A stretch of 64,000 nucleotides of DNA, taken from positions 434,001 to 498,000 of the forward strand of contig NZ_CP006681.1 of assembly GCF_000565175.1 (NCBI RefSeq). Direction: 5' to 3'. The notes below the pieces were generated by a model. It saw nothing but the letters and a program-made list of their open reading frames with translations. It was not told where the DNA came from and made no database searches. The DNA comes from Spiroplasma culicicola AES-1 (GTDB taxonomy: Bacteria; Bacillota_I; Bacilli_A; Mycoplasmatales; Mycoplasmataceae). Below, piece after piece: positions 18,937 through 47,547 of the stretch. A program made the translations under genes and the position numbers. Numbering within the stretch: position 1 is the first letter of the stretch; every line of letters starts with the position of its first letter.

Positions 18937-19053
18937 TCTAAAACACCTCGTCAATCCTTTAAATAAGTCATATTAATATCTATATTATAGCATAAATTCT
19001 AGTGATTTTTATATCATTGTGGACTATTCTGTGTGATAATAGAAATAAGAGTG

Positions 19054-19100
19054 TATAATAATTATTATGTTTTTATACTAGAAGGGGGATAACTATTTTT
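19054..19100 (+). promoter_or_regulatory. -10 element and RBS of truB-ribF
   Basis: TATAAT at 19054-19059 with an adjacent AT palindrome, then AGAAGGGGG as RBS before ATG 19101. No good -35. Confidence 0.45.
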
Positions 19101-20762: not shown

Positions 20763-21674
20763 ATGTTTAGAAAAAGCTTATTTACATATCCAGGAAATAA
20801 ATTTAAGGTTTTAGAAGAAATTGCATCTTATGTAGATAAAGAAGATATCTTTTTAGACTTATTTTGTGGTAGTGGTGTAGTGGGGTTAAATATGCCCTGT
20901 AATGAAGTAATATTAAATGATATAAATAGTAATTTGATAGAAATATTAGATTTTTTTCATAAGAATTCAAAAGAAAAAATTATAGCTAGAATAGAAGAAA
21001 AACTTGAATACTTTAATCTTTCAAATTCTTATAGGAATGGTTTTAAATATTATAAGGAACAAGTTGAAAATAAAAATAATGGTTTAAAGGAATATAATAA
21101 GCAAAATTATAATATATTTAAGAATCATTATAACTTATCTTTAAATAAAGATGTTTTAGACCTTTTTATTTTAAAAACTTATGGTTTTAATAATGAAATA
21201 CGGTTTAATTCTGTTGGAGAATATAATATTCCTATTGGTAAAACAGATTTTAATCAAGCAACTGTAAATAGAATTGGCAGTTTCAAGGAATTATGTTCAA
21301 TAAAGAAAATAGAATTCTTAAATTATGATTTTGATAGTAAAGAACTAAAAAAATATATTGATAAAGCTACAGTTATATATATAGATCCCCCATACTTATT
21401 AACATTAGCAACATATAATTCAACATGAAATGTTGAGGAAGAACAAAGACTTATTAATTTTATGCAAGATTTAATTAATAAAAAGAAAAAAATAATTATT
21501 TCAAATATTTTAAATAGAGGTGAAAAATGTAACCAATATTTAAATAGCTTTATTAAAAAGAATAAATTAAATGTAAAAATAGTTGAAATTAATTATGCAT
21601 CGTCTAGTTATAATAAAATAAATAGGGGAATGAAAGATCTAGAGGTATTAATAGATAATTATGAATCCAAATAA
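20763..21674 (+). CDS. DNA adenine methyltransferase, D12 class (first of pair)
   Basis: 303 residues. Transfers methyl from SAM to N6 of adenine. SAM-binding motif I is DLFCGSGVVGLN (from residue 32) and catalytic motif IV is DPPY (208-211), in the alpha (D12) order. The N-terminal YPGNKFKVLEEIASYV is typical of D12 enzymes. It overlaps the second methyltransferase by 14 bases. Two D12 enzymes beside one nuclease suggest an asymmetric site with one enzyme per strand (compare the two fused halves of M.FokI). Begins two bases after ribF and marks the left edge of the defence island; ATA and AGA codons become common from here. Confidence 0.9.
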
Positions 21675-22707
21675 TAGAAGATATATAGGGAATAAATATA
21701 ATTTAAAAGATTGAATTTTTTCTGAGATAGAAAATTCCTTAAACCAAAATAATGATATTAATAAAAATTTTAAATTTATAGATGCCTTTTCTGGAACTGG
21801 TAGCGTAGGTTTAAAATTTGCGGATGAAAACTATGATGTCGTTTTAAATGATAATTTATATCATAATTTTTTAATTTATAATGCATTTACTGGAATTGAT
21901 AAAATTAATATGCCTAAAATGGAACAATTACTAGAAAATTATAATAATTATGATTATGCTGAAGGAAATAACAATCATTTCTCAAATTTATTTGGAAATA
22001 AATATTTTTCATTAGAAAATTCCTATATTATTTGAGAAATTAGAAAAGACATAGAAGAATTATATTCAGATAGTAAAATTAATTTTTATGAGTATAGCTA
22101 TTTAATTTCTGCTTTACTTTTAGCCACTGATAAAGTTGCAAATACAGTAGGCCATTATGAAAGTTTTTTAAAAAGAAGTGAAACTAGTAGTATAAAAAAA
22201 ATTAATTTAAAACATTTATCATTAAAAACTTATTATGTTAATTTTCAAATTTTTAATATGGATATTAATCAATTAATTCAAGAACAAAAATTTGATTATA
22301 ATTCAATTTTATATTTAGATCCTCCTTACAATGCTAGACAATATATAAATTTTTATCATGTTTTAGAATATATCTCAATTGGTAAAGAAAGTGAAATTTT
22401 TGAAGGCAATTCTATGAAGTTTAAGAGGGATCATTTAAAAAGTGAATATTCAAGATCTAAAGCCATTTATTATTTTGAAGAACTTGTGAATTATTCTTCT
22501 TCTAAATATATTATATTATCATATAATAATACATATAATGCTAGATCAACTGCTTCTAATAATAAAATGTCAGAAAAAGATATATTAAAAATCTTAAACA
22601 AGATTGGTAAGGTGAGCATTGTAGAAAAGGATTATGCATTTTTTAATTCAGGAAAGACTAAATTAAATGATCATAAAGAAAGGTTGTATATTTGTGTGAG
22701 ATACTAA
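21661..22707 (+). CDS. DNA adenine methyltransferase, D12 class (second of pair)
   Basis: 348 residues. N-terminal NRRYIGNKYNLKDWIF, motif I DAFSGTGSVGLKFAD (from residue 41), motif IV LDPPYN (D220). The C-terminal region has HERLYICVRY-like ending and IILSYNNTYNARSTA, common to D12 enzymes of type II systems. Overlaps both neighbours, so the MTase pair and the nuclease are translated from one coupled mRNA. The target sequence cannot be inferred. Confidence 0.9.
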
Positions 22708-24028
22708 AACTATAAGTAATTTAATAGCAAATATAACTAATAGTGATTTAACAACAAGACATAACAAGGGTAATACTCATATTTTTACAGAGTATCTAAA
22801 TACTAATAGAAGAAATTTCAGCACCTTAATACATTCAATGAAATTTATTATTAAAGCTGATGAAAATAAAAAACAGAAGTCTGGACAATCACGTTTTAAA
22901 CAACATGAACCCAGACTGAAATCCTTAAATTTTATTATTAAATTGGGTCAAGATAAGTTTCAAATTACAGAATTAGGTGAGGAATTTTTAAAATATATTA
23001 ATTATATTGAAACTCTAACATTAGGAGAGATAGAGTTTAAGATATTAAAAAATATATATTGCTTTTTAATATTATTTTCAAATTTAAATAAAAGAGATAA
23101 TAATTATTTTTTATCAGAATATTCAAAATTCAAACATTTTCTCTTGAAAGTTAATAGACAAGAAAAATTATTTGAAGATTTATGATCCATATATCTTAAA
23201 AATGGTGAAGAATTAACTGAAAAAGAATATATTGCGTTAATTAAAATTAGAATATATCCATTTTTAAAAGATGATTTAGATAAAGAATTTGCATCAGATA
23301 TTGATTGAAATCGAATAGTAGCAGAAAACCAAGATTCTATTTTATTTGAATTTAGTGACAGTTATCATATATCAACATTTTTTGCAGAAATACTAATTAT
23401 GTATTTTTTAGATCTTTTATTAAAAGGACTAGATTTTGATGATACATTGGAAAAAATATGCGAACATTTGGAAATAAATAATTCAGATATTATTTTCCAT
23501 TTAAAGGAAATAGTCTTTAATAGTAGTTTTACTTTAAATTTTTATGATGTAATAACTGAAAACATCGTGAATTATGAAATTAATAGAGATGATATAAAAA
23601 GACAATTAAAGAAAAATGTTAATAGTTATTTATCAAAGGAAAAACATAGAAATAACTTTAAAAAAATTAATGTTAGAGATAGAACATTATTTAATCAAAA
23701 TAAATACATTGTTAAAGAATTTTATGATTTTCAATGTTTCTTTGAAGAGAATTATAGCTGTCGTTATTTTAAACAGTATAATTCAGTGAAGAATTATGTA
23801 GAGATACATCATATAATTCCGCATTCTAAATCAGATAGTTTTAAAAATTCTATTGAAGTATTGGGTAATTATATTTCACTTTGTCCAAATTGTCATAAAC
23901 AAATTCATAATGGTACTAGAAATGATGTTGAGATGATGCTTAAAAAAATTTATGAGTTTAAACAGCAGGAATTAATGGAAGAAAATTTAGAATGCACATT
24001 TGAAATGTTAATGAGTTTTTTCTTTTAG
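22667..24028 (+). CDS. Type II restriction endonuclease, HNH family (probable)
   Basis: 453 residues. An N-terminal region of about 370 residues without recognisable motif (presumably DNA recognition) is followed by a C-terminal HNH nuclease. That domain has EIHHIIPHSKSDSF, then LCPNCHKQIHNG, giving the His-Asn-His/Cys-x-x-Cys zinc arrangement around residues 380-415. Start chosen at ATG 22667 with GGAAAG ten bases upstream; GTG 22694 with AAAGAAAGG is an alternative. Overlaps the second methyltransferase, which fits expression of modification before restriction. Confidence 0.8.
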
Positions 24029-24654: not shown

Positions 24655-26082
24655 ATGGAAAGAAAGGATCAATATTTATCTAAGGTTAGACATACCAAAG
24701 ATATTATTATTGAGGTTTATACAAAGAATAATTTTAATTGAATGGTTGGTTTTTCTGGTGGAAAGGATTCTACAGTTTTAGTTCAAATTATAATGGAAGC
24801 ATTGTTAGAGATTCCCAACATTTCTAATTTTGATAATATTATTCATATTGTTAGTTCTGATACATTAATTGAAAATCCTATTGTTTTAAAGCAATTAAAT
24901 ACTTCATTAAAATTAATAGAAAATTTTGCAATTGATAATAAATTACCAATAAAAGTACATAAGGTTGAACCCGATATTGAAGAATCATTTTGAGTTAATT
25001 TAATTGGTAGAGGTTATCCTTTACCAAATCAAAGTTTTAGATGATGTACAGATAGATTAAAAATTAAACCAATGAATCAAAAAATGGAAGAACTTTCACT
25101 AAAAAATGAAGTTTTAACAGTTCTTGGTGTAAGAAAAGGTGAATCTGCTTCAAGAGATATAAAATTAGTCAAGAATGATATTAAAGATTCCTTATTCAAG
25201 AAGAATGATACAAATAATAAATTAATATTTGCCCCAATTGAAGAATTCAGTCTATATGATATTTGAAGTTATTTAGCAGAATCGCGAATTAATTTTTTTA
25301 AAACAAATAATAATACTTTATCTTTACTTTATGAAGATTCTTCAGTTGGAGTTGAAGAATGCCCTTCAAGTTTAGATGACAAATTACAAAAAGGATGTGG
25401 AAATTCACGATGAGGATGTTGATTGTGTCCAGTAGTTACACAGGATAAATCATTAGAAGGCTTTGTAAACTCAGGACAAACTTGGTTAAAACCCTTATTA
25501 GAATTTAGAGAAGAACTTATTCAAGGTAGAGATAAAGTTTTAAATAGGTTTAATGCATCATTAAGAATAAGTAAAACCAGTAACAATATTTCTTTACTTA
25601 AATACAGATATATGGATTTAAAAATAAAAAATGATAATTATTTTTTACCTAAAAAACTTGGTAGAGATGAAATACGATTTGGATATTTTGATAAAAATAA
25701 AAATATATTGATTAATGATAAAAAAATAAAAGTTATTAGTGAAACAGAATATAAGAATTTAGTAGATACAAATATTATTGATCCTTATTCAAATTCTTGT
25801 GCAGAGGAAATATTTGAATATGTTATAAAACTAGATAAAAATAGTAATAATCAAATTCTTTCAGTTCCTGGTTTAGGACCTTATACGTTGAAATACAGAA
25901 AGGAATTATTAAAATCTATTAAAAAATTAAAAAGAGAAATGTCTAGTTATGATATTGAAATTATTTCAGATCAGGAAATTAAATTAATCGAAAAAATTAT
26001 AGTAAATGTAGAAAATAAATTAAATGAGAGGCATTTTAATATAACAAAAGAAGGAGAAAAAGTATATGAGTCAAGAATATAA
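24655..26082 (+). CDS. dndC: DndC-like PAPS-reductase-family protein (DNA phosphorothioation)
   Basis: 475 residues. In Dnd systems DndC is an ATP pyrophosphatase with an Fe-S cluster that helps place sulfur in the DNA backbone. PP-loop SGGKDST at 34-40; HIVSSDTLIENP; FWVNLIGRGYPLP; FRWCTDRLKI with C131; LGVRKGESASRDIKL; and CGNSRWGCWLCPVV with C248, C255 and C258, giving the four expected cluster cysteines. LLEFREEL follows. These blocks match DndC very closely. Unusually, no dndA, dndB, dndD or dndE is nearby; a MORC-type ATPase, Z1 and DUF4420 follow. Overlaps the next gene by 17 bases. Confidence 0.92.
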
Positions 26083-27847
26083 TGAAGAGATGGAAATTCC
26101 GCGTAGTAATAGGGAATATTTAGGCTATATTGATAAAACAACAGACCATATTTATATGTTGTCTGAATTTATAGATAATTCTATTCAATCTGCAAAAGAT
26201 CATAAATTTAAAAATGTAGAAGTAAAAATCTGTATTGATAAGAAAAAGGGAATTTTATATATTAGAGATGATGCGGGTGGAATTGCGTTTAAAAATAGAG
26301 GAATTGCCATTAAAAATGGAAAAGATGAGACCGAACAAGGAGATACTTTAAATATGTTTGGTGTTGGTATGAAAATGGCTTCTATATGATTTGGTAGGAA
26401 AATGACATTTTTTACAAAATCAGTTGAAGATGATTTTAGTTATTCTTTAACTCTAGATGTAGATAAATTGGAACACTCAGATTTTAAAGTTGAAGTTCAG
26501 AAGAACATTGATATTACATCAACATCAGGAATAGATTTTCTACATGAGCATGGAACAATTGTGAAAATTGAAAATTTTCATTTAAATGGTCCACATGCAG
26601 GTAGATATGATAAAAAAATGTTTGTTAAAGGCGATAAAAAAGATGGAAAAGCACTTGAAGAGCAAATAGCTTGTCGTTTTTCAAGATATTTAAAAAATCA
26701 TTTTTTAAGAATAACTTTTAGTTATATTGATGATAAAGGCCTAGAACAAATGGATGGTACAAAACCACTTGTTATTACAGAAAGTACAATTCCAAATTTA
26801 TATTTATCTCAAAAAGACAAAAATGATTATGAATATTTACAAGGTAAAAATGTTAAAGAGGCAACCTTTTATAAAAAGATTATGAAGGAAATCTATAATA
26901 AATATGAAAGCATGTTTGATAATGATATTGAATTTGGTGATTTAACTTATAGAAAGATAATTGAAACTTTTGAAAATCAAGAAGAATTTAAATTTAAAAC
27001 CAAAATTCAATTAGATGAAAAATTTAATAATATAAAAATCCCTTTTACTTTTGGATATATTAAAAAAGAAAGTGCTTTTATGAAATATACAGGTTTATCT
27101 GTTTATCAAGATGATAGAGCAGTAATATCAGGACCAAATACAAATAAAACAAAATTAACATGACTTACTTTTGATAAAGCACTATCAAATAAATCTGTAA
27201 AGGTAACACTGCGTTTTATTGGAGAAATTGATTTAAATAATAAATCAATGTTTAGAGTAGATAATAACAAAATGGGTTTTCATGGAACAGTAAAAGAAGA
27301 TATTGAAGAAATTATTTCTAGAAAATTTCAAAAACATTTGGCAGATCTAATTGATAAACTTTTAGATATTATTTTATATAAAGATGAACAACATGCATCT
27401 GATGAAGCTATAAGAATTGAAAATGAAAGATTTGCAAAAGAAATTAATAAACATAACATTTTAGAAAATTGTTCAGTTGAAACTGAAAATTTAAATGTAC
27501 ATGAAAATGATGGAGAAAGACCTGTTAATTCTTTTAAAGTATTAGATAAAGTAACAAATGAGTATAAATTTAATTTTATACATTATTTACAGGATTTAGA
27601 TGATCAAAGAAGAATTTTTAGAGCAAATGTAGAAGTAGATAATACAGAAGGCAAATATTTATATATTTTATTTGTAAACAAGAAATTTGTTGGCTTTAAA
27701 CCAACTATGAAAGATGAAGATTTTTCAGTATTAGTAAATCCGATTATTAAATTAATTATTCATAGTTTAAAAGATGTTAAAGATCATGAAGCAAGAGTTG
27801 AAAAATTTTATAATATAGTTGAAGTTATTCAAGGTGATGAAAAATAA
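26066..27847 (+). CDS. MORC/MutL-like GHKL ATPase (Mza-type)
   Basis: 593 residues. GHKL ATP-binding site: N-box LSEFIDNSIQSA (N38), G1 box RDDAGGI (68-73), G2 box GVGMKMAS (99-106). A transducer-like region follows and an acidic C-terminal domain about residues 400-593. Prokaryotic MORC/MutL-like ATPases next to Z1 and DUF4420 proteins were described as part of restriction-like operons and, with an AIPR protein, as the Mza defence system (literature knowledge). Likely senses or remodels DNA. RBS AAGGAG within the end of dndC. Two TGA Trp codons. Confidence 0.85.
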
Positions 27848-27848
27848 T

Positions 27849-29258
27849 ATGTTTAAATTTATAAAAGATTTAACTATTGAATATAGAAATAACTTTGTTG
27901 AAAATGATCACTATAAAAAATTGAAAAATAATTTTTTAGAATCAAATCCCCATTATATGAAAGATGCATATCGTGATGTTTATGAAGTAAATGTTAAAAA
28001 TACTTTAAGTGTTTTTAATGATGAATTAAAAAGAAGTAGTATCTTATTAGCTGGTGAAGTGCAATCGGGTAAAACAAATAATATGTTATTTATAACTGCA
28101 GCATTAATTGGTCTTGGTTTTAATAAAATTATTTATTTTACAGGTACAAAAAATAATTTAAACAAACAAAACATAAAAAGATTTAAAGATTTTTTTAAAG
28201 ATGCAGAATTTAAAGATTTTTCAAATGCAAAATCTTTATTTAATAATTCAAATAAGGTTGAGATATTTTATGGAATTAAACAAAATCTTGGAAATATTAA
28301 CTCGTTATTAAATGATATGGATATAAGTCAATATGAAAACTGAAATGTTTTAATTATTGATGATGAATGCGATGAAGCCTCATCTGAAAAAACTAAAGAA
28401 AATAGAACCGTTAATGCAAATATTTTAAAATTATATGAAACAAATTTTAAAAAAGTTGTTTATTTGCCAGTAACTGCAACACCTTATGCAAATTTAACTT
28501 CATTTACTGATGGTTTAGCACCAAATTATGTAATACCACTTGTTTCATCAACTTCATATTGTGGATTAAAAGTATTTTCTGATAATGACTTATATAAAAT
28601 TATAGATAAAAGTATTGTAGATAAAATTTATGCTAGGAATTTTGATGTTCAAACTGAAGAAATTTTTATGAAATATATAATTGATTTTTTAATAGAATGT
28701 TATCGAGATGAAAAGAATTATCAATTCCTTATCAATATAACTGTAAACACAACTCCAATAAAAGACTATGATAAATATATTAGAAAAATCATTTCAAAAT
28801 TAAAAGTTAAAAATAAAGCTTTTTATAATAATTTTATTGGAAATGATGAGTATATTAGTTTTAAGCAATGACTAGATAAATTAGAAGTTAAAATGATTAT
28901 TGAAGGTTTTGAATATATAAGAACAACTAATCCAGAAATAATAATTGGGGGCAATTTATTGTCAAGAGGTATAACTTTTGATGATCTAATTTATGAAATA
29001 ATGTTAAATCACTCTGAAAGTGGAATTTTTTCAAGTGATACTTTATTGCAACGTGCTCGATGGTTTGGATATAGACTTCGCTATATTTATAAGATGAGAA
29101 TTTATACATCTAATATTGGCTATAACTTTTACAACAATATTTATGAAATTGATACACGTATAAGAAGTTTATATGAAAATGATTATTCAAATTCTAAAGA
29201 TAAAATTATGCGAATAAAAGATATTTTTAAAGAATATTCATATAAATGAACAAATTAG
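27849..29258 (+). CDS. Z1-domain ATPase/helicase-like protein, short form
   Basis: 469 residues, about half the usual Z1 protein. Walker A GEVQSGKT (residues 69-76), DEAD-like box IIDDECDEASSE, VTATPYANLTS, and the Z1 signature GGNLLSRGITFDDL followed by LQRARWFGYR with the arginine finger. So the SF2-type motor core is complete while the C-terminal domains of longer family members are missing. Start set at ATG 27849, one base after the ATPase stop, with AAGGTGATG as RBS. Confidence 0.85.
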
Positions 29259-29269
29259 GAGAATAAAAT

Positions 29270-30232
29270 ATGAGCATAAATGATACAGATATAAATATTA
29301 TTGATCAAAAAAATGGATATATTTTTTTCACTACAACTGATGTTAAAAATTTTTATATTTTAAAACCAACTATGTATAATGCTTCTCTACCTAAATCAAT
29401 TAAACCTTTGAAAAAACCTAATTTTTCTTATTATCCTTCTGTGAATTCAATAACTAGTTTTCAAAAAGAAGATGCTAGAATTAGAGTTTTACCCAATTAT
29501 AAAGTTGCAATCGAATATAATGATAAAAAAATGGATGGAGAAGTTTTGGCATTTGAAAAAGGTATAAATATAAGAGTTGCTGAATTAATATATACAACAT
29601 TTATAAATACTCATGAAATAGCAAATTCAATGTTTGAGATTGTAAAAGAATTTGAAAATATATTTGGTCTTATTTGAAAAATTGATAAAAAATTTCAAAT
29701 AGGTTTAATTGGTGAATTACTTGTAATGCAAAAAAATGAAGATTATATAGACATTTTAATGGAAGGTTTTCATGGAGAAAATATAGCTGATAAAAATTTT
29801 GAATCAATTACAGATTTTGAACTAAAAACAAAAAAGGGAATAAAAAATATAGAAGTTAAAACTTCTATATCAAATGAAGGGCTATTTACATTAAAAAATA
29901 ATCAATTAAATACAAGTATTAATGATTATTTTGCAGCTGTTACTATAGAAATAGTTAAAAAAGGGGGTCAAACATTAATTGATTTAATCGATTGATATTT
30001 AGAACTTCCTTCCTTAAAAAGTGAATTAAAAAATATGTTTTTAGATTTGAAAGAATCACATGATAGTAGAAATTTATTAAGATTCGATCCAAGAACTGTA
30101 AAATTAAAATTTATTGATATACACAAATTACCAAAAATTCAAAATACAGATGATAGAATTAAAAATATTAAATTTCAAATTGATCTAAACCATTTTGAAG
30201 ATATCCAGTTAAAAAGCATTATTGCCTCTTAA
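29270..30232 (+). CDS. DUF4420 (PD-(D/E)XK-type) nuclease-like protein
   Basis: 320 residues. The C-terminal half carries GLIGELLVM, then SITDFELKTKKGIKNIEVKTS at about residues 180-202, giving Glu, Asp and E-x-K of a PD-(D/E)XK nuclease. This is the DUF4420/PF14390-type protein that accompanies MORC-type ATPase and Z1 genes. The N-terminal half is beta-rich. Last gene of the operon; its stop lies inside a 14-bp terminator stem. RBS TTAGGAG. No AIPR gene follows, unlike full Mza loci. Confidence 0.8.
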
Positions 30233-30760: not shown

Positions 30761-31627
30761 ATGTATACAATTGAACAATTAAATAGTATTAAATTGAATT
30801 TTCACTTTAGTATGTTTTGCAATATGAGATGTAAATTTTGCTTTTATGCTCCATTGATTGCAAAAGCAAAACGTGAAGATAATTTAAACAATTGATTAGA
30901 AATAATTAAAAAAGTTGCCTTTTTTAAAGCAATTAACTTTGCAGGTGGAGAACCTACACTTTATTGAAATCAATTAAAACAAATGGCTAAACTATGTAAA
31001 GAATTAGGTCTTAAAGTTACTTTAATAACAAATGGAACAGTAATTAAAAATAAATCTCAAAATGAAGTAAATGATCTATTACAGTATTTTAATAGTGTGG
31101 GAATTAGCATGGATTCAATTGATTTAAATATAAACCAAAATTCAGGTAGAGCGATTGGCAATAAATCTGCATTATCTGAAGATGATTATTTAGAGGTTGG
31201 AGCAAAAATAAAAAAAGCAGGGTGTCAACTTAAAATTAATTCTGTAGTTCATTCTTTAAATAAAAATACAAGGATGATAGATTTTATAGAAAAAATTGAT
31301 CCATATAAATGAAAAATAATGCAAGTTAGTTCTGTTGGTCAAGAATTTCATAAGGATTTCATTATTTCTAAGTCTGATTTTGATAAATTTTTAGAAATAA
31401 ATGATATTAAAAATAAACATAGTTTTGTAAAATCAATTGAAGATGAAACTACTGTTACATCAACTTATGTGATGATTGATGGAGAGGGATATTTCTATAA
31501 TTCAGATCAAATATATAATAAGAATAATAAAAGTATTTTAAAAGAAAATGTAGATGTATTAGAAGAATTTAATAAATGTAATTTTGATATAAATTCTCAA
31601 TTAGATAGATATAAAAATGAAAAATAA
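30761..31627 (+). CDS. Prokaryotic viperin (radical SAM antiviral enzyme)
   Basis: 288 residues. Viperins convert nucleoside triphosphates to 3'-deoxy-3',4'-didehydro forms that stop viral polymerases; prokaryotic homologues protect against phages (literature knowledge). Radical-SAM cluster C20-x3-C24-x2-C27 in FCNMRCKFCFY, preceded by LNFHFS; INFAGGEPTLYW; LITNGTVI; ISMDSID; SGRAIGNK; CQLKINSVVHSLN; YKWKIMQVSSVGQEF; and the C-terminal ETTVTSTYVMIDGEGYFYNS. These match viperin block by block, including the C-terminal region absent from MoaA-like enzymes. No nucleotide kinase neighbour. Confidence 0.9.
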
Positions 31628-31760: not shown

Positions 31761-33185
31761 ATGAAACAACTTATAGTTAAGATGAAAACAATTATTAATG
31801 ATGAATTATTGGCTTATGAGAAAAAATCAAAAATAACAAATAATAGAATAAAACAATCATTGTATAAAAAGAATGTAAATTTTTTAAATGAAAGAAGTAT
31901 TGCATTTCAAATAACTAAAGCTTTAGAAAGTCACTTAAACTTGTTGAATTTAATTATTTACTCTGAATTTCATTTGAAATCACAAGTAACGCTGACTCAG
32001 AAAGCAAAAAAAGATATATCATTGGAAATACCTGAGTATAAAAAAGAGTCTAATAAATATGATTATTATCCTGATACATATCTATCTTTTAAAAATAATA
32101 AAGGAATTATTACTGACATTTTTATTGAATATAAAGTAGATAGTGCTTTTTCATTTAGAAAATTGGCGGGAGATTTTTTGAAATTTAAATATTATACTTG
32201 AAAGGGCAAAGGCAATAATAATTTTATATATATTCTTTTTGGTAAGAAAAATACTGCGGGAATTGAAATCCCATGTATGTATCAAGTTCATGACAATAAT
32301 AATATTCAAGAAATTAATAAATATTTAATTGAGAAAGATTTAAACAAGAAAGCGAATATTTTTTATTACATTAATGATAAAGGCAATTCAGTTGAAATAA
32401 AAGAAAATACGCTTATTAATGCTAATAAACTATTGGATGAAATTATCAAACTTGAAGAGGAAAATTTATATAATGAAATTCATGATTATTCACAAAAAGA
32501 TTATTTCTCAAATATAAATCAATTTATTTTTGGAGAGAAAGTTTTACTATCAAAGATAATTCAAAATAATTTTTATCAGATTAAACAACTTTATAAAGAA
32601 ATAATAGAAAGAAAAAATATTAATCTACTATTACCTAAAAAAACATATTTATCAATTAAAGATTTTGTAAAAAATGATATTTCAAATATTAGTTTAACAG
32701 TTAAAGAAATAGCAAATCATTTCAATAAACAAATTATTAGAAAGTCTACTAGTTCAAAAAAAGGTATAAACCAAGCTGAATTTACTATTAGGCTAAAAAG
32801 ATCACTTTGAATGTTAATAATATTAGATAAATTTTCAAAGGATAATGATTTTAAAACTAGAATTTTAAATGAAAATAGTTTTAGTCAAAGAGAATGAAAT
32901 GAAATTGAATTATTGAAAGAACGTCTTGATGAAATATATAAAAGTAAAGAAAATTTTAATATTTTATCATTGGGATTAATTTATTATATTGTTAATTTAT
33001 ATGAAGAAGTTGGAGCACTTGAAGGTAATGAATATGTATTATCAAAAGAATTTAAAGCATTTAGAACTAATAAGAAAATTGAAAAATATATAAGAAATAT
33101 ATGTGAAGAATTAAATATAAAAAATGAATCTGAAGACATTTCTGATAAAGAAATAGGATTAAATATCATTAATGCGTTATTATAA
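31761..33185 (+). CDS. Large unknown protein with nuclease-like motif
   Basis: 474 residues, soluble. Residues about 90-145 (YYPDTYLSF ... TDIFIEYKVDSAFSFRKLAGDF) contain PD, then an E-Y-K triad spaced as in PD-(D/E)XK nucleases, followed by FIYILFGKK as a possible core strand. The rest is helical and Lys/Glu-rich. RBS AAGTGAGG. Follows viperin by 133 bases without an obvious terminator and may be co-transcribed. A restriction-like nuclease or viperin partner is possible; unproven. Confidence 0.6.
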
Positions 33186-37518: not shown

Positions 37519-39468
37519 ATGGTTTATAACGAAGGGAATATAAAATCATTTTATGAAATTTTAGACAATAATAAAGATGAATATATATCTTCTTTTGATT
37601 TAAAAGATGTAAAATTATTTAATCTTAATTTGTCAAATTTGCATTTAAAAAATATTACATTTTGTAATGTGTATTTTTGAAAAGTAAATTTTGTCAATAT
37701 TATTTTTGAAGATTGTTTATTTGAAGACTGTATTTTTGAAGATACAACATTAAATTTTGTAACATTTGATAAAGATGAACTTATTAAAACCAAATTTTTA
37801 AACGCTAAGGGTAAGGTACTTAATATATTAGATACAATTTCTGAAGAATTGATTTTTGAATCTATTGGCATTGAAGAATTAAATATTGTAAATTCAAAAT
37901 TAGATATTTTTAATATTATTAAAAGTAATATAATTGAGTTTAAATTATATAGAAATAAATTTAATGAATTGTATTTAGAAAATAGCGTAATAGATTTAAA
38001 AATAAAAGAGTGTACTTTTATTCAATTAATTGCTAAACAAAATATATTCAATTACTTACTATTGAATAAAATTGTATTTGATATTGTAGATATTATAAAT
38101 AATACAGTGTATGATTTAAAAATATTTAATTCAAAATTTCTTAATAGTGAGTTTAGACAAAATTTAATTTTATTAACTAAAATAACAGAGTTACAAACTA
38201 GTAAAACGTTAGTTAAAAATAATATTATATTTTTAAATGAACTTAGAGATATTGATGAAAGAAAAGTATTACTTTTAAAATCTAATTATCAAGATTTTGA
38301 TCATGTGGACTTGTATAAAACTGGGGATAGATATTTGAATATTTATTTATTTGATAATCAATCAATTACTAAAAGTCTATTTTATTTAAGAGCTATTAAT
38401 ATCTATTTTTATGAAATTAAATCTAATTTTCAAAAATATAAAATAGTAAATGATCAAAATTTTATAGGATTATGAAAGAAAATATTTCTAGAAATTATCA
38501 ACATTAAATATAAAGAATTTAATGTTGAAATTGATTATTTTAATGAAGATATACAATATGATATTTTAAATTTATATGATTATTTAATTTTTGGAGACCT
38601 TGATTTGCATAAAAATTTAATGAAAAAAAGAAATAAATATATAATTGATGAAGATGTTGAAACAGACCAAAAAGTTCTAAAAGATGAATATGGATACAGG
38701 TCATCAATATACTATAAATATTCAAAAGGTTATGAAGATGATGAAGCTTTTGAAGAATATGAAGAAAAACAAATTCATTTTGATAAAGATAAAAAAGATA
38801 TTCTAGAAGAGAAAACAAATAATTGTAAAAAAGAGATATTGTCTAGGGAATATGGCTTAAAAAATGTTAATAATATCTTTAGTAAAAGAATTATGGTATT
38901 AACAATTGATCTGCATGGAACCAAAAATGATGTAGATTCAATATATAAAATTAATATGAGTATATTCTCGAATAAAAAACTTGTAGAAACTAAATATATT
39001 GTTTTTAAGCCTAAAAACTATGATTTATATCCAAATTCATATTTAAAGAGTTCTTTTATTGAAAAAAATGATAATCTTTCAGGGTTTGAATCATATAAAA
39101 AGTTAGAACATCTCCCAAAACTTGAAGATTTTATCAATGATATTTTAATTATTTTTAAAGATATTGATTATGTAATCACATATAATTCTTCGTATCATTT
39201 AAGAATATTTTTAAAAGCAATTGAACCTTATTGTGAAGTGTATATTAACTATTTTGATATATATACAATTGCAAAGTATAAATATATGGACAAAGATATT
39301 TCTAAAAAAATGTTTGATATTGCTCAATATTTAAGTATTACTTCTGATGAATTTGAAGGTGATTTTGGTAGAAATTTTACAATATTTAAGATATTTATAA
39401 ATTTATATTCTGAAAAAGAATATGAGGAAGTTTTTTATTTAAAAAAACATTATTTAAAAGAAACTTAG
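37519..39468 (+). CDS. Pentapeptide-repeat protein fused to a degenerate exonuclease-fold domain
   Basis: 649 residues. The N-terminal part (about 30-240) has a five-residue repeat, for example FCNVY-FWKVN-FVNII-FEDCL-FEDCI-FEDTT, predicting a right-handed quadrilateral beta-helix. A charged linker (about 360-440, many Glu/Asp/Lys) follows. The C-terminal about 200 residues have the DnaQ/DEDD layout: strand RIMVLTIDLHGT (D-x-H instead of D-x-E), DYVITYNSSYHLRIFL in place of HNxxFDxxFL, and INYFDIYTIAKY for the Dxxxxx segment. Key acids are lost, so it is probably non-catalytic. First gene of the second defence block; RBS GGGAG. Confidence 0.7.
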
Positions 39469-39501
39469 AAATATATAATATTTTTAAATTTTATAAACAT
39501 T

Positions 39502-39548
39502 AAACCTACTATAATGTACATTATTAATGTACAATTATGGTAGTTTTT
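39502..39548 (+). terminator. Long hairpin terminator, related to the one at 37368
   Basis: Arms 39502-39522 and 39526-39546 pair along about 20 bp with a small bulge on each side, followed by TTTTTTA. The outer part (CCTACTATAAT ... ATTATGGTAG) matches the outer part of the hairpin at 37368-37413. Lies 33 bases after the stop of the pentapeptide-repeat gene and 25 bases before the next start. Confidence 0.6.
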
Positions 39549-39571
39549 TATATTTGTGGGGGTATAAAGAT

Positions 39572-40342
39572 ATGCATGTAATTAAAAATGATAGTTATTT
39601 TTTTGCGTTTAATAAAAGAAGCGCCTATAACATTATAGAAAGATTTAAAAATAAAAGATTGGTGGTAATTGACTTTGAAGCTTTTCAGTTTCACATGAGA
39701 AATAAAAATAAATTTAAACAAATTACAATAAATGATATACCATATACAGTTTGTTTAAACACAATGACATTTAATTTTGATTTAAATCAATTTATTTCAA
39801 CAAACGAAAAAGTTTATCAATTTAGAGATGAATGAAGAAGTGAAAATGAATTATTATTAGAACTTGAGAAAATGGCTATTTTTATTGCAAATTATGTTAA
39901 AACTAATGAAATTGACTATTTTTTATTTATGGCAGATTTTTTAGAAAAACGAGCATTAGAATTTTTTGTTACTAAATTTGGTGCTGAAATTAACTTGGAT
40001 AAATACTTGAACATAAGGGGTTTTGATTTATATAGTGGTTTCTTTTTTAATGAATCAAATTTTAAAATTTTATCCTATAAACATAAAGTTCAAGACATGA
40101 TAAAAACTTTTATGTATAAAAATGGTGATGAATATGAAAATTTTGAAATCGGAAGAGATGGGATGAAACATTTTGAAGAAATTTTAAAAGGTAGAAATTC
40201 TGATGTATTAAATTTTGAAAAAGTAAAGAAACATAGCTGAATTGATTTACAGAAGGGTACTGAGTTAATGAATTATATTTGTCAATTAGCAAATTGACCA
40301 GAGGAACTAATTTTAAATATAGATTTATTAAAAAATGAATAA
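39572..40342 (+). CDS. DEDD exonuclease-like protein, family A copy 1
   Basis: 256 residues. Begins with a short basic segment then RLVVIDFEAFQF, a D-x-E as in exonuclease motif I. Residues about 105-130 (NEIDYFLFMADFLEKRALEFF) and GFDLYSGFFF correspond in order to exonuclease motifs II and III, but the catalytic Asp residues are not clear. Related to the gene at 46398, which has IIDIEAFSW and IIYFGGLLERKNFKF at the same places. Start at ATG 39572 with GGGGGT upstream; an earlier ATG lies within the terminator hairpin and was rejected. Confidence 0.6.
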
Positions 40343-40355
40343 AGAGGATAAAAAT

Positions 40356-42680
40356 ATGTATGTTAAAAAGTTTGAGAAAGCAAAATTTATTGAATTTCAT
40401 AATGGATATGAATGAAAATGAAAATTTGAATTAAATTCTGGAAAACACATAATTGTAGAACAAGGGGTTTTAAAATTTATTCTTGGACGTGTTCCTATTA
40501 AAAATGAAGAACTTTTATTAGAATTTAAAGTTAATCATATTGAAAACCCAAATGAATTAATTAAAATAAAAAGTATTTATTTGGTTCATGAATATAAAAT
40601 TAAAATTCTAACTGAAATGATAAGTGATATATTAAATCCAATTGGGATTAATCCATGAGATGTATATAACATATTAAAAAAAGTAGAACGAAAAATGTAT
40701 GCAAGTAATAGTGAGAGTTCTACTTCTTATAACTATTTTGTTAAGCAATTAGAGAAATTTGCACAAAATATTGAAAGTGAAAATAGAGATATAAAAACGG
40801 GAATCGATAAATTAATACCTCTAAAAAATAAAATTGAATCTATTAAAAAATATGAAAAAATGATTTTATTTTATTTAGATAATTCAATTAAACCTTTATA
40901 TATAAATCAATTATTGTTTTCTTTGAATTACCAAAAAATTGAATTTGATCTTTCTGATAATTTAATTAATTATATTACTAACTTTTTTTATGATCAACAC
41001 AATTATGATCTAAAAAATGAATTTACATATATTAATGATTTGTTAATCAGTTTAGGTGTTTTGGTTAATGATAAACTTAGAATGGCTTATGAAATGCGAT
41101 ATCTTTGTACTTTGAAAGCATTTGATACTGGAAATACTTATTTAGAAAAAGATGAATTTAATTCATTATTCGAATATAAATTATTATTTGAAAATAGAAA
41201 TGAAATAACTCAAACATTATTCAATAAAAAATGAATTATAGAAGAGAATAATGTAATTTTTGAAAAATTAATCTATATACAAGAAAAAAGTGTCTCTGAA
41301 AAATTGGTTCATTTTCTTATGGAAAATAATGAATTAACTAATAATTTAGATGAATTTTTATTTAATAAAACAATTGAAGAAATAAAATTGTCTGATGAAC
41401 AAAAAGAAGCTTTAAAGTTATTTTCAAATAATAAAATACTTTTAATAAACGGTGGCGCTGGAACTGGAAAAACAACTGTTATAAAAGCTATGATTGAATT
41501 ATTTTTAAAAGCTTATCCAATGTCTTCTAAAAAAATATTTGTTGCAGCTCCAACAGGGATGGCTGCAAATAATATTAAAGAAAAAATGAATGATGATATA
41601 TTTAGGAACACTAAAATTGGTACAATTCATTCAATTCTTGAAGCAATTGATTTCCATACATTTATGAGAAATGAAAATAACAAAATTGAAGCTGACTTAT
41701 TAATTGTTGATGAATCATCAATGATTAATTTATTTGCATTTTATAGTTTATTTAAAGCAATTCCAAATACTATTAAAAGAATTGTGTTCATTGGAGATAG
41801 CAATCAATTACCACCAATTGAAGTTGGTAATGTTTTTGAACAGATGGTTAATTTTGATTTCATACCAAAAGTAACTTTAAAACAAAATCATAGGCAATTA
41901 AATGGTAAAGGTATTATTGAGTTATCACAAAAAATATTAAGCAATGATCTTAATAGAACAAATGTTTATGAATTTATTGATTCATTAAAAAAATATTCAG
42001 ATATTGAAATGATGTTTGATATCAAACCTGATGAATTATATGAAATGATGTATGAAAAATACAGTGTACCAAAAGAAGAATACATTCAACAAAAATTTCA
42101 AATAATTACTCCAGTCACATCTTCAGAAAAAGAATATTCTTATAATGATTCAAAATTAAATACAAAAATTTCAAATAAAATAAATACTGATAAAAAGTTT
42201 CATAAAAATATTAAATTAAATGATAAAATAATGATTTTAAAAAATGATAATAATATTGAAATTTATAATGGACAATTGGGATGAATCAATCCAAAAGAAA
42301 ATAAAATAGATGATGTAATATTTTATAATATGAAAATGAAAAACAAAGATTTACCTATATTTGATAATTCAAATCAAATATATACTTTTGCTTCATCTTC
42401 AACAGTTCAAATGAAATTGGCCTATGCAATAACTGTTCATAAATCTCAAGGAGGAGAATTTGATGAGTTAATGTATTGTGTTGAAGGCAAAACAAGTAAT
42501 GAAAGATTATTTCACAATAAAAGAATGGCATATACTGCAGTAACACGAGCAAAAAATAATCTAATTCTTTGTGGAAAAAAGGAAGTTTTTGTTGAACAAA
42601 TATTGACAAATTTTAAAAATATAAAATCAATGATGATTTATTTTATCAATAATTGTTTAACAGTAAAAGAAGGAGAATAA
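40356..42680 (+). CDS. RecD2-like SF1B DNA helicase
   Basis: 774 residues. N-terminal about 340 residues include an OB-like start and helical region similar in layout to RecD2. The motor: Walker A NGGAGTGKTT near residue 366, APTGMAANNI (motif Ia), TIHSIL, LIVDESSM (motif II), IGDSNQLPPIEVGNVFEQM (motif III), LKQNHRQ (motif IV), ITVHKSQGGEFDELM (motif V) and AYTAVTRAKNNLIL (motif VI). Predicted 5'-3' DNA helicase. RBS AAAGAGGA. Followed two bases later by an OB-fold gene, so a helicase and a possible ssDNA-binding protein are co-expressed. Chromosomal RecD2 copies normally sit elsewhere. Confidence 0.88.
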
Positions 42681-42682
42681 TA

Positions 42683-43021
42683 ATGAATTTATTTATTGGG
42701 ATTGGAAATATTTCAAATATATCTGAATTAAAAATAGCTAAAAATAATCAACCATTTGTAAATGCAACATTATGAACAACAAATATTGGTGCTGAAAAAT
42801 TACAAAAACAAATCATGGTGATGTTTCAATCATTTGGAAATATTGCATATGAACTTGAACATATTAAAAATGATATTACTAAAACTGATGAATTCTTAGT
42901 AATTGGGTTTGCAAATATATCTTCAAATTTTAAAGGTATAAGTATAGAAAAAATTATAAAAATAAATGATAAAACTGATATTAACAATTTCTTTGAAAAT
43001 GAATTATGGAAAATATTATAG
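42683..43021 (+). CDS. Small SSB-like OB-fold protein
   Basis: 112 residues. The N-terminus MNLFIGIGNISNISELKIA followed by NNQPFVNATLWTTN follows the beta-1/beta-2 pattern of single-stranded DNA-binding proteins (MNxxxLxGxLxxxPELxxxxxGxxVxxxxLAxxR). No acidic SSB tail (it ends FENELWKIL). RBS AAGGAG. Overlaps the next gene by 16 bases. Probably coats or hands over single strands for the neighbouring helicase; inference. Confidence 0.55.
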
Positions 43022-43500
43022 ATATAAATGTTTTATTTAATAAATATAAATTGAAATATCCTATTAGTGAGATTAACCAAAAAATTAATCAATTAGTATT
43101 GGATAAAAAAATATATTTATTAAATAATGCAAAATTTTCGTATTCTTTTATTAAAGAATACGAAAAAAATGAAGAAAAAATAAATGATTTTGTTAATAAA
43201 ATCTTAGAATACAGTTACTTTGCTACATTTGTAGACGATAGTCTTTTAAGAAAATATTGTATAGATCTCTATGAGTTTATACATACAGTACAAAAAAAAG
43301 ATTATAAATTTGAAATATATGGAAATATTATTACTAAAGGATGTAAAATACATATTTGAAAAGAAAATAAATTATCTTTTGAACAAGTTATGAAAATAAT
43401 TGAAAACTATGATGAAGAAAAACAATGTGAAATACTAAAAAATGAGTATTTTTCATCAAAATTTGAATATTCAAAATATATAGAAGGAAGGTTTAAATAA
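43006..43500 (+). CDS. Unknown protein between OB-fold and Z1 genes
   Basis: 164 residues, helical and charged, no signal or membrane segment. N-terminal MENIIDINVLFNKYKLKYPISEINQKINQL resembles a winged-helix-like start. Overlaps both neighbours (stop TAA shares a base with the next ATG), so it is strictly coupled with the OB-fold and Z1 genes and likely belongs to their complex. No family recognised. Confidence 0.6.
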
Positions 43501-46037
43501 TGACAAATAATGCTGAAACAATATATAAACAGTATTTAGCTTTGGAAAATTTTAATATGTTTTCAAAAGCTGAAATTATTGATAAATTAGCTATTAAATT
43601 TGAATTACCAAAAGAGCAAATTTTAAAAATAGTATCTGAGGATCCAAATAGAAATATTTTTAATTTTAAAAATTCAAAAATATTAAAATATAAACCAATT
43701 GAGGAATTGGAATTAACAAATTTTACAAATTATTTACAAGGTTTAAATAGAAATTATATTGATTTAAAAAACCTTAAAGAAGAAACTGTTGATATTTTAA
43801 AACAAATTAGTGTTGCTGATGAGGTTGAAGAATTCAAAATTAAAGGATTAGTAATTGGAGATATTCAGTCAGGTAAAACTTCTTCAATGGTTGGTTTGAT
43901 TAATGGAGCTTTTGATATAGGTTATAAATCAGTAATACTTTTATCTGGTTTAATTAATGATTTGCGTGAACAAACAAGTAAAAGGTTAAATCAAGGTTTT
44001 GGTGTTGAAAAAGATGAAATTAATTCTTGATTTGATTTAGAAAAACAAGACATTGTAAATCAAACAATAGATGGAGAAATTTCAAAATCAAATTCAACAC
44101 GTTATATGTTAAACGAAACTAAAAAAACATATTGAGTAACTAAAAAAACAGTTCCTATTTTAAAAACACTAAATTCTTTATTTGATCAATATCATGAGTT
44201 TTCACTTAAACCTACAAGCGATGGCAAAGAATCTGATTTAACTAAAACATTAAACTCAAAAATATTAATAATTGATGATGAAGGGGATTTAGCATCTCAA
44301 GATGCTTCTTCTGCTTCTTCAGAAAATGTTACAAAAACAAATGCATTAATAATTGAATTGATGAAAAAATTCAAAAAAGTTTCTTATGTTTCTTATACAG
44401 CAACTCCGTTTGCTAATTTATTAACAGATAGAGATAAAACTCATGAGGGAGAAACATTATTTCCTGATAAATTTATTTCGTTAATTACACCAGGAATAAA
44501 CTATACTGGTTTTTCTAAGTTTAATCGTTTATATTCAGAGTTTAATAGTGTTAAATTTCTTAATGAAGAAAAACTAAAAGAATTTAAAAATGATAATTTT
44601 ATAGATTTTGATAAATACAATGATTTTATTGAGACCATTAAAGTATTTTTATTTACAACAAGTTTATTCAAATTAAACGAAAATTCAATGGTTGTAGAAA
44701 ATGAATATTTTAAAACAATGTTAATAAACATTGACATAAAAAATGATAATCAAATTCTTTTTAGAAATCATGTTCAAAATATTTTAATGCAAATTAAAAA
44801 AGAATTTATGTTTAATACTGAAAGTTTTAAAAATGAATTAGAACAAATTATAAAAGATAAATATTTTAATTTATATTACTTATTTATTGAAAAATTTAAT
44901 TTTGACTTTTGAAATACTTTTGAACATGTTTTAGATAATGCGGAAATTAAAATTGTTAATAAAGATAATATAGATTCAAAAGTATTTGAAATTGAAACTT
45001 CAAAGATTGAAAAGATACAAATAGTAATTGGGGGATTCAAATTATCAAGAGGACTTACAATTCCTGGACTATTCACAACTGTATTTTGAAGAAATACAAA
45101 TACTTTTGACTCTGCAATGCAAATGTGTAGATGATTTGGTTATAGAGATAATTATTTGGAATACATAACTGTATTTACAACTAAAAAAGCTTGATCAGAT
45201 TTCTACAGTATGTTTGAAACATATGATGACTTTAAAAAAGAAGTTACGTTCCAAGAAGAACAAGGCCTAAGTGCAGATGAATTTATAATAAAAATTAGTT
45301 CTGCTCACAGATTATTACCTACAAGTAAAAATAAAATGAAGGGTGCTGATAAAATATATGATAAATGATCAAAAACTGGAAGAAATCAAATCTATAATTA
45401 TGATTTAGATGAAAAAATTTTGGAAAATAATTTAAATGTCTTGAGTGAATGAACAAAAGAGATAGAGTTTACAGAATATAAACATAACTTTATAGCACAA
45501 AACGTAAAATTTAATAATATTAAAAACTTACTTGAAAACCTAACTTTTGAAAATATGGCAAAACAAAAAATTGATAATCATTGTATGATTTTTGATAAAA
45601 ATCAATCTGATAAATGAGATGTTGTAATTAAAAATATTCATAGTAAAGCAAATGGTATACATTATTTAAATGAAAATATATCAATCAATTTAAGTAAAAA
45701 AAGTTTTGTTTGAAAACATATTGATAATAAAAATATTGCTCATGTTAGAACAATTTTAACAACTGATTTTGAAAATTATTTTTTTGATTTAGAAGATAAT
45801 AATGTTAACAATCAATATGAATTTAAAAGTAAGTTATTGGATTTAAATCATCCTGTGTTGTTTATTTCATTACTGAAATTTGTAAATGAAGTTGAGGATG
45901 AAAATAATCAATCACAATTGCCAGTAGTAGCAATTGCATTTTATAATCCGCATGAAAAGGAAATATATAAATCAAATAAAATTGTTTATATAAATACTTC
46001 AGGCCAAGAAATTACTGAGGAAGAAATTTTATCTTAA
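43500..46037 (+). CDS. Z1-domain ATPase/helicase-like protein, full length
   Basis: 845 residues. Walker A VIGDIQSGKTSSM near residue 120-130, ILIIDDEGDLASQ, YTATPFANLL and the Z1 signature IVIGGFKLSRGLTIPGL with MQMCRWFGYRDNYLEY, plus about 300 further residues typical of long Z1 proteins. Contains five or more TGA Trp codons. It differs strongly from the short Z1 at 27849 (they share only the core motifs), so this is a separate system. No MORC-type ATPase or DUF4420 is adjacent. Confidence 0.88.
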
Positions 46038-46397
46038 AACAATAATTCTTTAATTTTATTATTAAAAATATATAAGTAAAAACAAATTAATTTCTAAGAT
46101 AATATTTTATGAATTATATGAGATATGATAATTAAATGCTTTTAGAATAAATAATGATAAAATTTAAATATCGACTAATTTAGAAAATTATTTGATATTC
46201 TATTTGATAATTATTTAAAGATAAATTCTTCAGGTTTTTTGAAGATAGTTTAAATGAGTGAACTGAATCAATTATATTTGCTTATTGGAAATGACTTGAT
46301 TAACAAATATTAAATAAAGATTTGTTAGAAAATGAATAATGATTAATTCATTTAAATATTTTTATGTTTTAAAAAGTATAAATAGAAAAGAAAATAT
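46038..46397 (+). pseudogene. Gap with decayed coding fragment
   Basis: About 360 bases without an intact gene. A frame around 46180-46296 encodes FRKLFDILFDNYLKINSS and continues to EDSLNEWTESIIFAYWKWLD before a stop; it uses TGA as Trp twice and has no start codon or RBS. This looks like the remnant of a gene end. The rest is AT-rich with no clear element. Confidence 0.3.
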
Positions 46398-47075
46398 ATG
46401 AATAATAGTAAAATAATTAAAATTGGGAATAAAATTAGTATAGAAATATTTTTAGATAAATATAAGGAAATAATTAAAAATATTAATAACTCAAGATCTG
46501 CAATTATTGATATTGAAGCTTTTTCTTGAAATGATGATTCAAAGAAAAATGTTAATGATAGAAATCCTTTTATGATTGGTATTGTATTTTTTGAAATCAA
46601 GAATTTCAAAATAAATAATGTGCAATATCAACAGCTAATAATTGAACAATTTAATGATAAAAATGATTATTCTGTAAAATTGCAAATTCTTAAAAATAAA
46701 TTATATTCTTTTATAAAGGAACAAAATATTAATACAATCATTTATTTTGGTGGTCTTTTAGAAAGAAAAAATTTTAAATTTTCTTCAAATAATTATTTTG
46801 TTTACGATATATATGATATTTATAAACAAAATTCAGGAGTTGATATTTTAAATAATAAAAAAATTAAAATTAAAAAATTATTAGAAATAATTACTGAATT
46901 TAATTTTTCTAATAATATTTCAAGTGACTGAGTTCGTTTAAGTGCAAATAAAGTTTTTAGAGATAAACAAGAATTAGAATTAAAGGATAAAATCTTAAAT
47001 TATAGTAGAGAAGAATTAGAAATTAATGTAAAGGTGATTGAGATTTTATTGTTAAAATATAATTGTTTAATATAA
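46398..47075 (+). CDS. DEDD exonuclease-like protein, family A copy 2
   Basis: 225 residues. SRSAIIDIEAFSWNDD gives a D-x-E like exonuclease motif I; NINTIIYFGGLLERKNFKF and FVYDIYDIYK follow in the order of motifs II and III. Similar to the protein from 39572 in all three places. A C-terminal motif (SANKVFRDKQELELKDKIL) could supply the last acid. It closes the second defence block. A DnaQ-like fold is inferred from motif order; nuclease activity is uncertain. ATG 46398; RBS weak (AAAAGAAA). Confidence 0.6.
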
Positions 47076-47103
47076 TTGAAGAATAATTTAATTAGGAGAA
47101 TAT

Positions 47104-47547
47104 ATGAAAAAAATTATTGATAATTTATACTTAGGAGATAGACATAGTGCACCAAATGATACACAATTGCGTATTAGTTGTGCTGAGGAAATCTTTTATA
47201 ATGTAGCAGATGATACAAGTAAAGATATTTATTGAGATAGAGATGAACCTGCAGTTTATTATAAATTTGAAGATTATCCAGATTTTAATAATATGGATAT
47301 AAATATAATTAAAGATGCTATTAATCAAATAGAAGAAAATATTGATACTAAAAAGATTTATGTTCATTGTTTGTGAGGAGTTAACAGAAGTGCTTCAATA
47401 GTATTTATGTATATGGTTCGCAATAACTTAATTGCTGGAAATACATATAAAGAATCACAAAAAGCATTTTGAAGCATTTATCCAGATCACAGTCCAAATC
47501 CAGGATGAAAAGAGTTTTTGATTAAAAATTATCCATATAATTTTTAA
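47104..47547 (+). CDS. Dual-specificity protein phosphatase-like
   Basis: 147 residues. The P-loop HCLWGVNRSAS (C89, R95) is the cysteine-phosphatase signature C-x5-R-S. IIDNLYLGDRHSAPN at the start and EDYPDFNNMDINII as the general-acid loop region agree with atypical DSPs. Rare in Mollicutes; may act on protein or nucleotide/sugar phosphate. RBS TAGGAG. It ends in a terminator at the right edge of the island. Relation to defence is unknown. Confidence 0.85.

What the first reader, a model, noticed from the sequence alone, without database searches (positions are those of the whole stretch)
37519..47075. Candidate new system: exonuclease-fold proteins, RecD2-like helicase, OB-fold protein and full-length Z1 in one block
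From 39572 to 46037 the genes are packed with overlaps or a few bases between them: exonuclease-like, RecD2-like helicase, SSB-like OB protein, unknown, Z1. A related exonuclease-like gene closes the block, and a pentapeptide/exonuclease-fold fusion opens it. Each piece acts on DNA, none is a methyltransferase, and the combination matches no named defence system that I recall. It suggests recognition and unwinding of invading DNA followed by degradation.
Basis: partly seen in the sequence, partly recalled or inferred. Interest (0 to 1): 0.9.

Follow-up and report, generated by a model that had tools for sequence, protein, structure and literature searches.

The report
Three-gene SSB–adaptor–Z1 ATPase defence-like unit
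In a small mollicute genome, a DNA-motor ATPase of a family used in restriction and anti-phage systems is always encoded with a single-stranded-DNA-binding-like protein and a small winged-helix-like protein instead of its usual MutL-type partner and nuclease; this looks like an undescribed variant of a known kind of DNA-defence machine, while the other genes that were lumped with it are local passengers.

Summary
The genes are real, but only under genetic code 4 (TGA=W). The seven-gene "system" is not conserved. Its 3' part is: an SSB-like OB gene (42683-43021), a 164-aa gene (43006-43500) and a long Z1 SF2 ATPase (43500-46037) occur together, same order, overlapping or a few bases apart, in exactly the same 7 of 60 genomes of the family, each gene absent from the other 53. 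RecD2-like, exo1, exo2 and pentapeptide genes are absent from all six other loci; exo1 is a stand-alone gene in six other genomes; pentapeptide and exo2 genes are unique to this genome. The OB-linked Z1 proteins are one clade (SH-aLRT 99), sister to Z1 proteins of Mza-like MutL-Z1-DUF4420-AIPR operons. So an SSB-like and a winged-helix-like protein stand where MutL, nuclease and AIPR stand elsewhere. Neighbourhoods are rich in restriction genes (4/7 loci against 0/18 control windows). Best reading: a lineage-specific variant of Z1-ATPase defence, in which OB/wH proteins recognise ssDNA or junctions and load or trigger a dsDNA motor. No nuclease is recognisable in the core, so the effector step is open; defence itself is untested.

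The parts
42683..43021 (+). CORE: SSB-like OB-fold gene, 112 aa (ATG; an in-frame TTG at 42653 is less likely); no acidic SSB tip, instead a conserved C-terminal W-[KR]-x-[LF]-like end
43006..43500 (+). CORE: 164-aa protein, predicted winged-helix-like domain (residues about 54-121) with helical C-terminus; adaptor candidate
   Evidence: AlphaFold pLDDT 84; best fold match CtsR DNA-binding protein, VIA Z 5.4 over 65 residues, weak; present only in the same 7 genomes
43500..46037 (+). CORE: long Z1 protein, 845 aa, SF2 ATPase: GDIQSGKT (motif I), IDDExD (II), TATPFAN (III), LSRGLT (V), QMCRWFGYR (VI), C-terminal alpha/beta region of unknown role
40335..42680 (+). Local addition: RecD2-like SF1B helicase, accessory paralogue (the probable housekeeping copy is at G000:576650-578281)
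   Evidence: in none of the six other loci
39572..40342 (+). Local addition: exo1, DxE-containing exonuclease-like protein; stand-alone family in 6 other genomes
   Evidence: ORF listed from 39527
46398..47075 (+). Flanking gene exo2, distant relative of exo1, 360 bases after Z1, found only in this genome
37519..39468 (+). Flanking gene: degenerate pentapeptide-like N-terminus and unknown C-terminus, found only in this genome

Best explanation
The functional unit is the three-gene operon OB-unk-Z1 (42683-46037). It is a variant of the Z1-ATPase DNA-defence theme (CglI N-protein, MutL/MORC-Z1-DUF4420, Mza). The Z1 protein is an SF2 DNA translocase/ATPase (shown by motifs and fold; activity inferred from N.CglI). 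In place of the GHKL (MutL/MORC) protein, nuclease and AIPR that accompany its nearest relatives, it has an SSB-like OB protein and a small winged-helix-like protein. Proposed mechanism (inferred): the OB protein binds ssDNA, or ssDNA-protein complexes, exposed at replication or recombination intermediates of incoming DNA; the winged-helix-like protein bridges it to duplex DNA and to Z1; ATP-driven translocation by Z1 then blocks, remodels or exposes the invading DNA for cleavage, either by the uncharacterised Z1 C-terminal region or by nucleases supplied in trans. In this one genome exo1 and an accessory RecD2-like helicase stand translationally coupled upstream and may add resection. Shown: gene set, order, co-occurrence, clade, SSB relation, SF2 motifs, restriction-gene context. 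Inferred: complex formation, substrate, defence role and effector step.
For: Perfect co-occurrence of OB, unk and long Z1 in the same 7 of 60 family genomes across 3 genera, with overlapping genes in nearly all, while upstream and downstream genes differ. The OB-linked clade of Z1 has SH-aLRT 99 (quick tree) and scores over 1080 bits against at most 376 bits for all other Z1 in 395 class genomes. Most of the nearest outside Z1 genes have a MutL/MORC-type gene directly upstream and a gene of about 310-330 aa downstream, and none has an OB or unk hit. OB is SSB-related. The Z1 model matches SF2 ATPases (RIG-I, FANCM translocase, Mfd; VIA Z about 17; HsdR among the Foldseek matches). Restriction/abortive-infection genes lie within the 20-kb window in 4 of 7 loci against 0 of 18 windows from the same genomes, leave-one-locus-out; R-M, AIPR, type IV-like and REase_MTES genes are named. 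N.CglI, a Z1 ATPase, hydrolyses about 170 ATP/s on dsDNA and is needed for cleavage by its partner (PMC4267653). SSB-ssDNA is a known trigger of helicase-nuclease defence (AbpAB, Hna).
Against: No nuclease is recognisable in the core and no methyltransferase or toxin is constant beside it, so the cutting or killing step is missing. No experiment. The set is known from one bacterial family only. The winged-helix assignment rests on a weak fold match (Z 5.4). In this window and in G166 and G177 the leave-one-out neighbourhood test found no restriction gene within the 20 kb tested; in the window such genes lie 11-23 kb upstream.
Confidence: 0.55

Rival explanations
1. The OB-unk-Z1 operon is a DNA repair or fork-rescue module of mobile or accessory DNA, not a defence system: an accessory SSB with a fork-remodelling translocase.
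For: SSB relation and SF2 translocase fold close to FANCM, Mfd, RecG and RadD; no nuclease or toxin in the core; in G177 it follows rpoB-rpoC with no recognised defence gene near.
Against: Patchy presence in 7/60 genomes at unrelated sites, restriction-rich neighbourhoods, and descent next to Mza/MORC-Z1 defence ATPases.
Confidence: 0.22
2. One reading: one seven-gene system, with RecD2 helicase and exonucleases degrading DNA recognised by OB and Z1.
For: In this genome exo1, RecD2, OB, unk and Z1 are packed with overlaps or a 2-base gap, so they are probably co-transcribed.
Against: RecD2, exo1, exo2 and the pentapeptide gene are absent from all six other OB-unk-Z1 loci; exo1 lives alone in six genomes; pentapeptide and exo2 genes are singletons.
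Confidence: 0.1
3. Two units are fused at this site: exo1 plus the RecD2-like helicase form one, OB-unk-Z1 another, and they share transcription only. (Compatible with the best explanation; it concerns the upstream genes.)
For: Accessory RecD2-like paralogues lie near MORC-Z1 and REase_MTES genes in other genomes (G182, G186).
Against: exo1 and RecD2 are not neighbours in any other genome seen.
Confidence: 0.3
4. The core is a decayed Mza/MORC-Z1 system that lost MutL, nuclease and AIPR and picked up unrelated small genes.
For: The Z1 clade is sister to Mza-type Z1; no effector is seen.
Against: Three genes kept together over deep divergence (Z1 31-49%, OB 18-54% identity to the window's) with all SF2 motifs intact: maintained, not decaying.
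Confidence: 0.08

Closest known systems
Mza system (MzaC = Z1 protein) and MutL/MORC-Z1-DUF4420-AIPR operons
   Same: Homologous long SF2-Z1 ATPase; the OB-linked clade is its sister; both stand among restriction genes
   Different: No GHKL protein, no DUF4420-type gene and no AIPR in the operon; SSB-like and winged-helix-like genes upstream instead; NCBIfam MzaC score 186.6 against a 1500 cut-off
CglI/NgoAVII restriction systems (N-protein with DEAD and Z1 domains; PMC4267653)
   Same: Z1 ATPase as a separate motor subunit working with partner proteins
   Different: No PLD-B3 endonuclease partner and no constant methyltransferase; here OB and winged-helix-like partners
Third MORC operon type with a distinct SFII helicase bearing DThhQXuRhFG (Iyer et al. 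2008, PMC2292703)
   Same: This Z1 carries the motif as DSAMQMCRWFG
   Different: GHKL ATPase and RE-fold nuclease absent
AbpAB and Hna (SSB-triggered helicase-nuclease defence)
   Same: Works-like only: helicase-type motor with SSB-ssDNA as the cue
   Different: Their SSB is the phage's; here an SSB-like gene is part of the operon; the proteins are not shown to be related
Bacterial SSB
   Same: The N-terminal 75 residues align with mollicute SSBs
   Different: No acidic C-terminal tip; conserved C-terminal Trp instead

Membership tests
Mza system | MutL/GHKL protein encoded directly upstream of Z1 | tested here: not met
   no MORC/MutL-type homologue in the six other OB-linked loci by BLAST with the window's MORC protein; OB and unk occupy the upstream position in all seven; outside relatives have it
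Mza system | MzaC equivalog score | tested here: not met
   NF041933 186.6 bits, cut-off 1500
Mza system | DUF4420-type nuclease and AIPR protein downstream of Z1 | tested here: not met
   downstream genes differ in all seven loci and none matches the window's DUF4420 protein; AIPR lies within 10 kb in G181 and G199 but beside methyltransferase genes
CglI-type restriction system | PLD-fold R-protein and cognate methyltransferase | tested here: not met
   none in the operon; a PLD-helicase and a methyltransferase are directly upstream in G191 only
SF2 helicase/translocase with Z1 domain | motifs I, II, III, V, VI and Z1 domain | tested here: met
SF2 helicase/translocase with Z1 domain | ATPase and translocation activity | not testable with these tools
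   needs purified protein
SSB | OB-fold SSB core homology | tested here: met
   (by sequence profile; fold of the OB protein itself was not predicted)
SSB | acidic C-terminal tip | tested here: not met
RecD2 (40335-42680) | TIGR01448 equivalog score | tested here: not met
   304.6 bits, cut-off 500; a RecD2-like copy stands elsewhere in the genome
DEDD exonuclease (exo1, exo2) | recognised exonuclease domain | tested here: inconclusive
   D-x-E motif only; no profile match; fold not predicted

The most novel reading that the evidence does not exclude
A defence system in which a dedicated SSB-like subunit, rather than a sequence-specific or GHKL partner, recruits a Z1 dsDNA translocase to ssDNA-containing intermediates of invading DNA and acts without a separate nuclease, for example by stalling or dismantling replication, or with a nuclease hidden in the Z1 C-terminal region.
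Probability: 0.3. Interest if true: 0.75.

Novelty: new variant of a known kind. Interest (0 to 1): 0.55.

Why it matters
Z1 ATPases recur in restriction and anti-phage operons, yet what Z1 does apart from its nuclease and MutL partners is not known. A minimal three-gene form without either would let the Z1 motor be studied on its own, and a built-in SSB-like subunit suggests that sensing of ssDNA-protein complexes, seen in AbpAB and Hna through phage SSB, can be carried by the defence operon itself. It also shows that small mollicute genomes keep elaborate, little-described DNA-defence genes.

Tried and rejected
Table 11 reading of the block (broken ORFs; rejected). Single-sequence scan of genome contigs with the window Z1: no relatives. 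Viral contigs with the Z1 alignment: none. Rfam and tRNA: nothing in the window. PDB sequence searches with OB, unk, Z1 and exo1 profiles: no credible match. Relation between the pentapeptide protein's C-terminus and exo1: none. Foldseek for the 164-aa protein: no match at E under 0.001; winged-helix rows by VIA at Z up to 5.4, so the fold is a lead, not a finding. Z1 on plasmids and phage-labelled contigs: of the five regions opened, three hold Mza-like or MutL-Z1 sets, one a Z1 gene beside HaeIII R-M genes and one an AIPR-Z1 pair; none has OB or unk. Promoter-like sites are no more frequent than in shuffles. The careful tree did not finish; the quick tree was used. Literature searches found no named system of this make-up, but the library lacks most subscription papers.

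Full report
Reading frame and genome. The window lies at G000:C1:434001-498000 of a 1.18-Mb single-contig genome. With the standard code the block is broken; with table 4 (TGA=W) it resolves into intact genes, so the host is a mollicute; a genus mate carries a spiralin-domain protein, so a Spiroplasma relative is likely (inference).

What is in the block. 37519-39468, 649 aa: weak pentapeptide-like start (below Pfam's cut-off) and an unassigned remainder. 39572-40342 (ORF from 39527): exo1, no match to any library, with a D-F-E-[AS]-F motif in all full-length homologues. 40335-42680, 781 aa: RecD2-like SF1B helicase, 304.6 bits to TIGR01448 (cut-off 500), with a RecD2-like copy, probably the housekeeping one, elsewhere in the same genome. 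42683-43021, 112 aa: OB gene. 43006-43500, 164 aa: unknown. 43500-46037, 845 aa: Z1 protein. 46398-47075, 225 aa: exo2, distantly related to exo1 (hhalign E 1.9e-5). Next comes a dual-specificity phosphatase gene (47104-47547).

What is conserved. In 320 genomes of the order, Z1 occurs in 63; seven carry the 845-aa type. Fetching 20 kb around each of the six others and comparing all genes shows one constant unit: OB, unk, Z1, same order and strand, overlapping by 1-16 bases as a rule (one start codon choice in G181 and one 3-base gap in G197 aside). A profile of OB finds these seven genomes and, far below them, ordinary ssb genes; a profile of unk finds the same seven of 60 family genomes and no other. 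RecD2, exo1, exo2 and the pentapeptide gene are in none of the six. exo1 occurs by itself in six other genomes without the core; the pentapeptide and exo2 genes are found only here. In G166 and G177 another gene (334/340 aa) fills the slot just upstream of OB and occurs nowhere else in the family: the upstream slot is variable.

What the Z1 protein is. Its motifs are those of an SF2 ATPase: GDIQSGKT, IDDEGD, TATPFAN, LSRGLT, QMCRWFGYR, kept in all seven with conservative changes and shared with Z1 proteins from other phyla. The model (pLDDT 81, 31 sequences) matches RIG-I, FANCM and Mfd at Z about 17, and HsdR appears in the Foldseek list. The motif D-T-h-h-Q-x-u-R-h-F-G of the 'distinct SFII helicase' of MORC operons (PMC2292703) is present as DSAMQMCRWFG. 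In a 40-protein tree the OB-linked Z1s are one clade (SH-aLRT 99), sister to the long (mostly 910-975-aa) Z1s of other bacteria; in 395 class genomes the five OB-type Z1 genes that were sampled score over 1080 bits and everything else at most 376. Those nearest outside Z1 genes mostly have a MutL/MORC-type gene directly upstream and a gene of about 310-330 aa downstream, often followed by one of about 700 aa: the Mza/MORC arrangement. A second, MORC-linked Z1 set is present in the same window (26066-30232).

What the partners are. OB aligns over its first 75 residues with mollicute SSB (93.7%, E 1.8e-7; the SSBs had been found with the OB profile, so the figure is not independent). It lacks the acidic tip and ends in a conserved Trp followed by a basic residue, a plausible docking motif (inference). 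unk has no sequence relative; its model (pLDDT 84) holds a winged-helix-like domain, best match CtsR at Z 5.4, which is suggestive only. Neither has conserved residues that look catalytic.

Setting. With a leave-one-locus-out search using methyltransferase, restriction, AIPR, MORC, Schlafen-like and viperin proteins, 4 of 7 core loci have such genes within their 20 kb and 0 of 18 windows from the same genomes do (Fisher p about 0.003 by hand). Named neighbours include type II restriction enzyme and methyltransferases and AIPR (G181), a methyltransferase fusion and PLD-helicase (G191), AIPR, methyltransferase and a type IV-like enzyme (G199), D12-type methyltransferases, HNH and a REase_MTES helicase (G197), and a Schlafen-like helicase with a MazG-like gene (G166). 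In the window a D12/D12/HNH set, the MORC-Z1-DUF4420 set and a viperin lie 11-23 kb upstream.

Mechanism. Established for a relative: N.CglI, a Z1 ATPase, uses about 170 ATP per second on dsDNA and drives cleavage by its partner (PMC4267653). Established for unrelated systems: SSB-ssDNA triggers AbpAB and Hna. From these I infer that OB provides ssDNA or junction recognition, unk couples it to Z1, and Z1 translocates. What then harms the invader is not shown: there is no recognisable nuclease in the core. exo1 and RecD2 could supply resection in this genome but not in the other six.

Judgement. The core fails the defining features of each named system tested (see membership tests) but is clearly related to Z1 defence ATPases, so I call it a new variant of a known kind. 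Interest 0.55: a clean, conserved, unnamed gene set with an unexpected SSB-like partner, but confined to one family and with function inferred.

Noticed in passing
window 30761-31627: A prokaryotic viperin (NF038283 234 bits, cut-off 180; PADLOC pVip) in a mollicute, followed by a 474-aa orphan gene (31761-33185) with no family match and only a short weak match in one of the 59 other family genomes.
   Followed up: partly
window 24655-30232: PAPS-reductase-like, MORC/GHKL, Z1 and DUF4420 genes in a row; the first three recur in G182 (L098:3-4414) at 46-60% identity with an accessory RecD2-like gene nearby. The PAPS-reductase-like member of a MORC-Z1 set looks unusual.
   Followed up: partly
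window 20763-24028; L042:4667-8016: Two D12 adenine methyltransferases and an HNH nuclease; a related D12/D12/HNH set lies beside the OB-unk-Z1 locus of G197.
   Followed up: no
L040:11842-12843 and L041:8377-9396: A 334/340-aa protein of unknown kind directly upstream of OB in G166 and G177 and nowhere else in the family: a candidate optional fourth subunit.
   Followed up: partly
L042:4182-4565, 12076-13149, 18627-19745: Pieces of the PLD-ResIII helicase family that is intact in L038 and L039: one N-terminal piece and two C-terminal pieces 68% identical to each other, as if decayed or shuffled.
   Followed up: no
window 46398-47547: exo2 and a dual-specificity phosphatase gene 28 bases apart; a relative of the phosphatase (28%) lies near an exo1 gene in L091 (1814-2311).
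   Followed up: no
window 39572-40342; L090-L095: exo1 is a stand-alone accessory gene family of this lineage (28-65% identity) with no library match; its function is open.
   Followed up: partly
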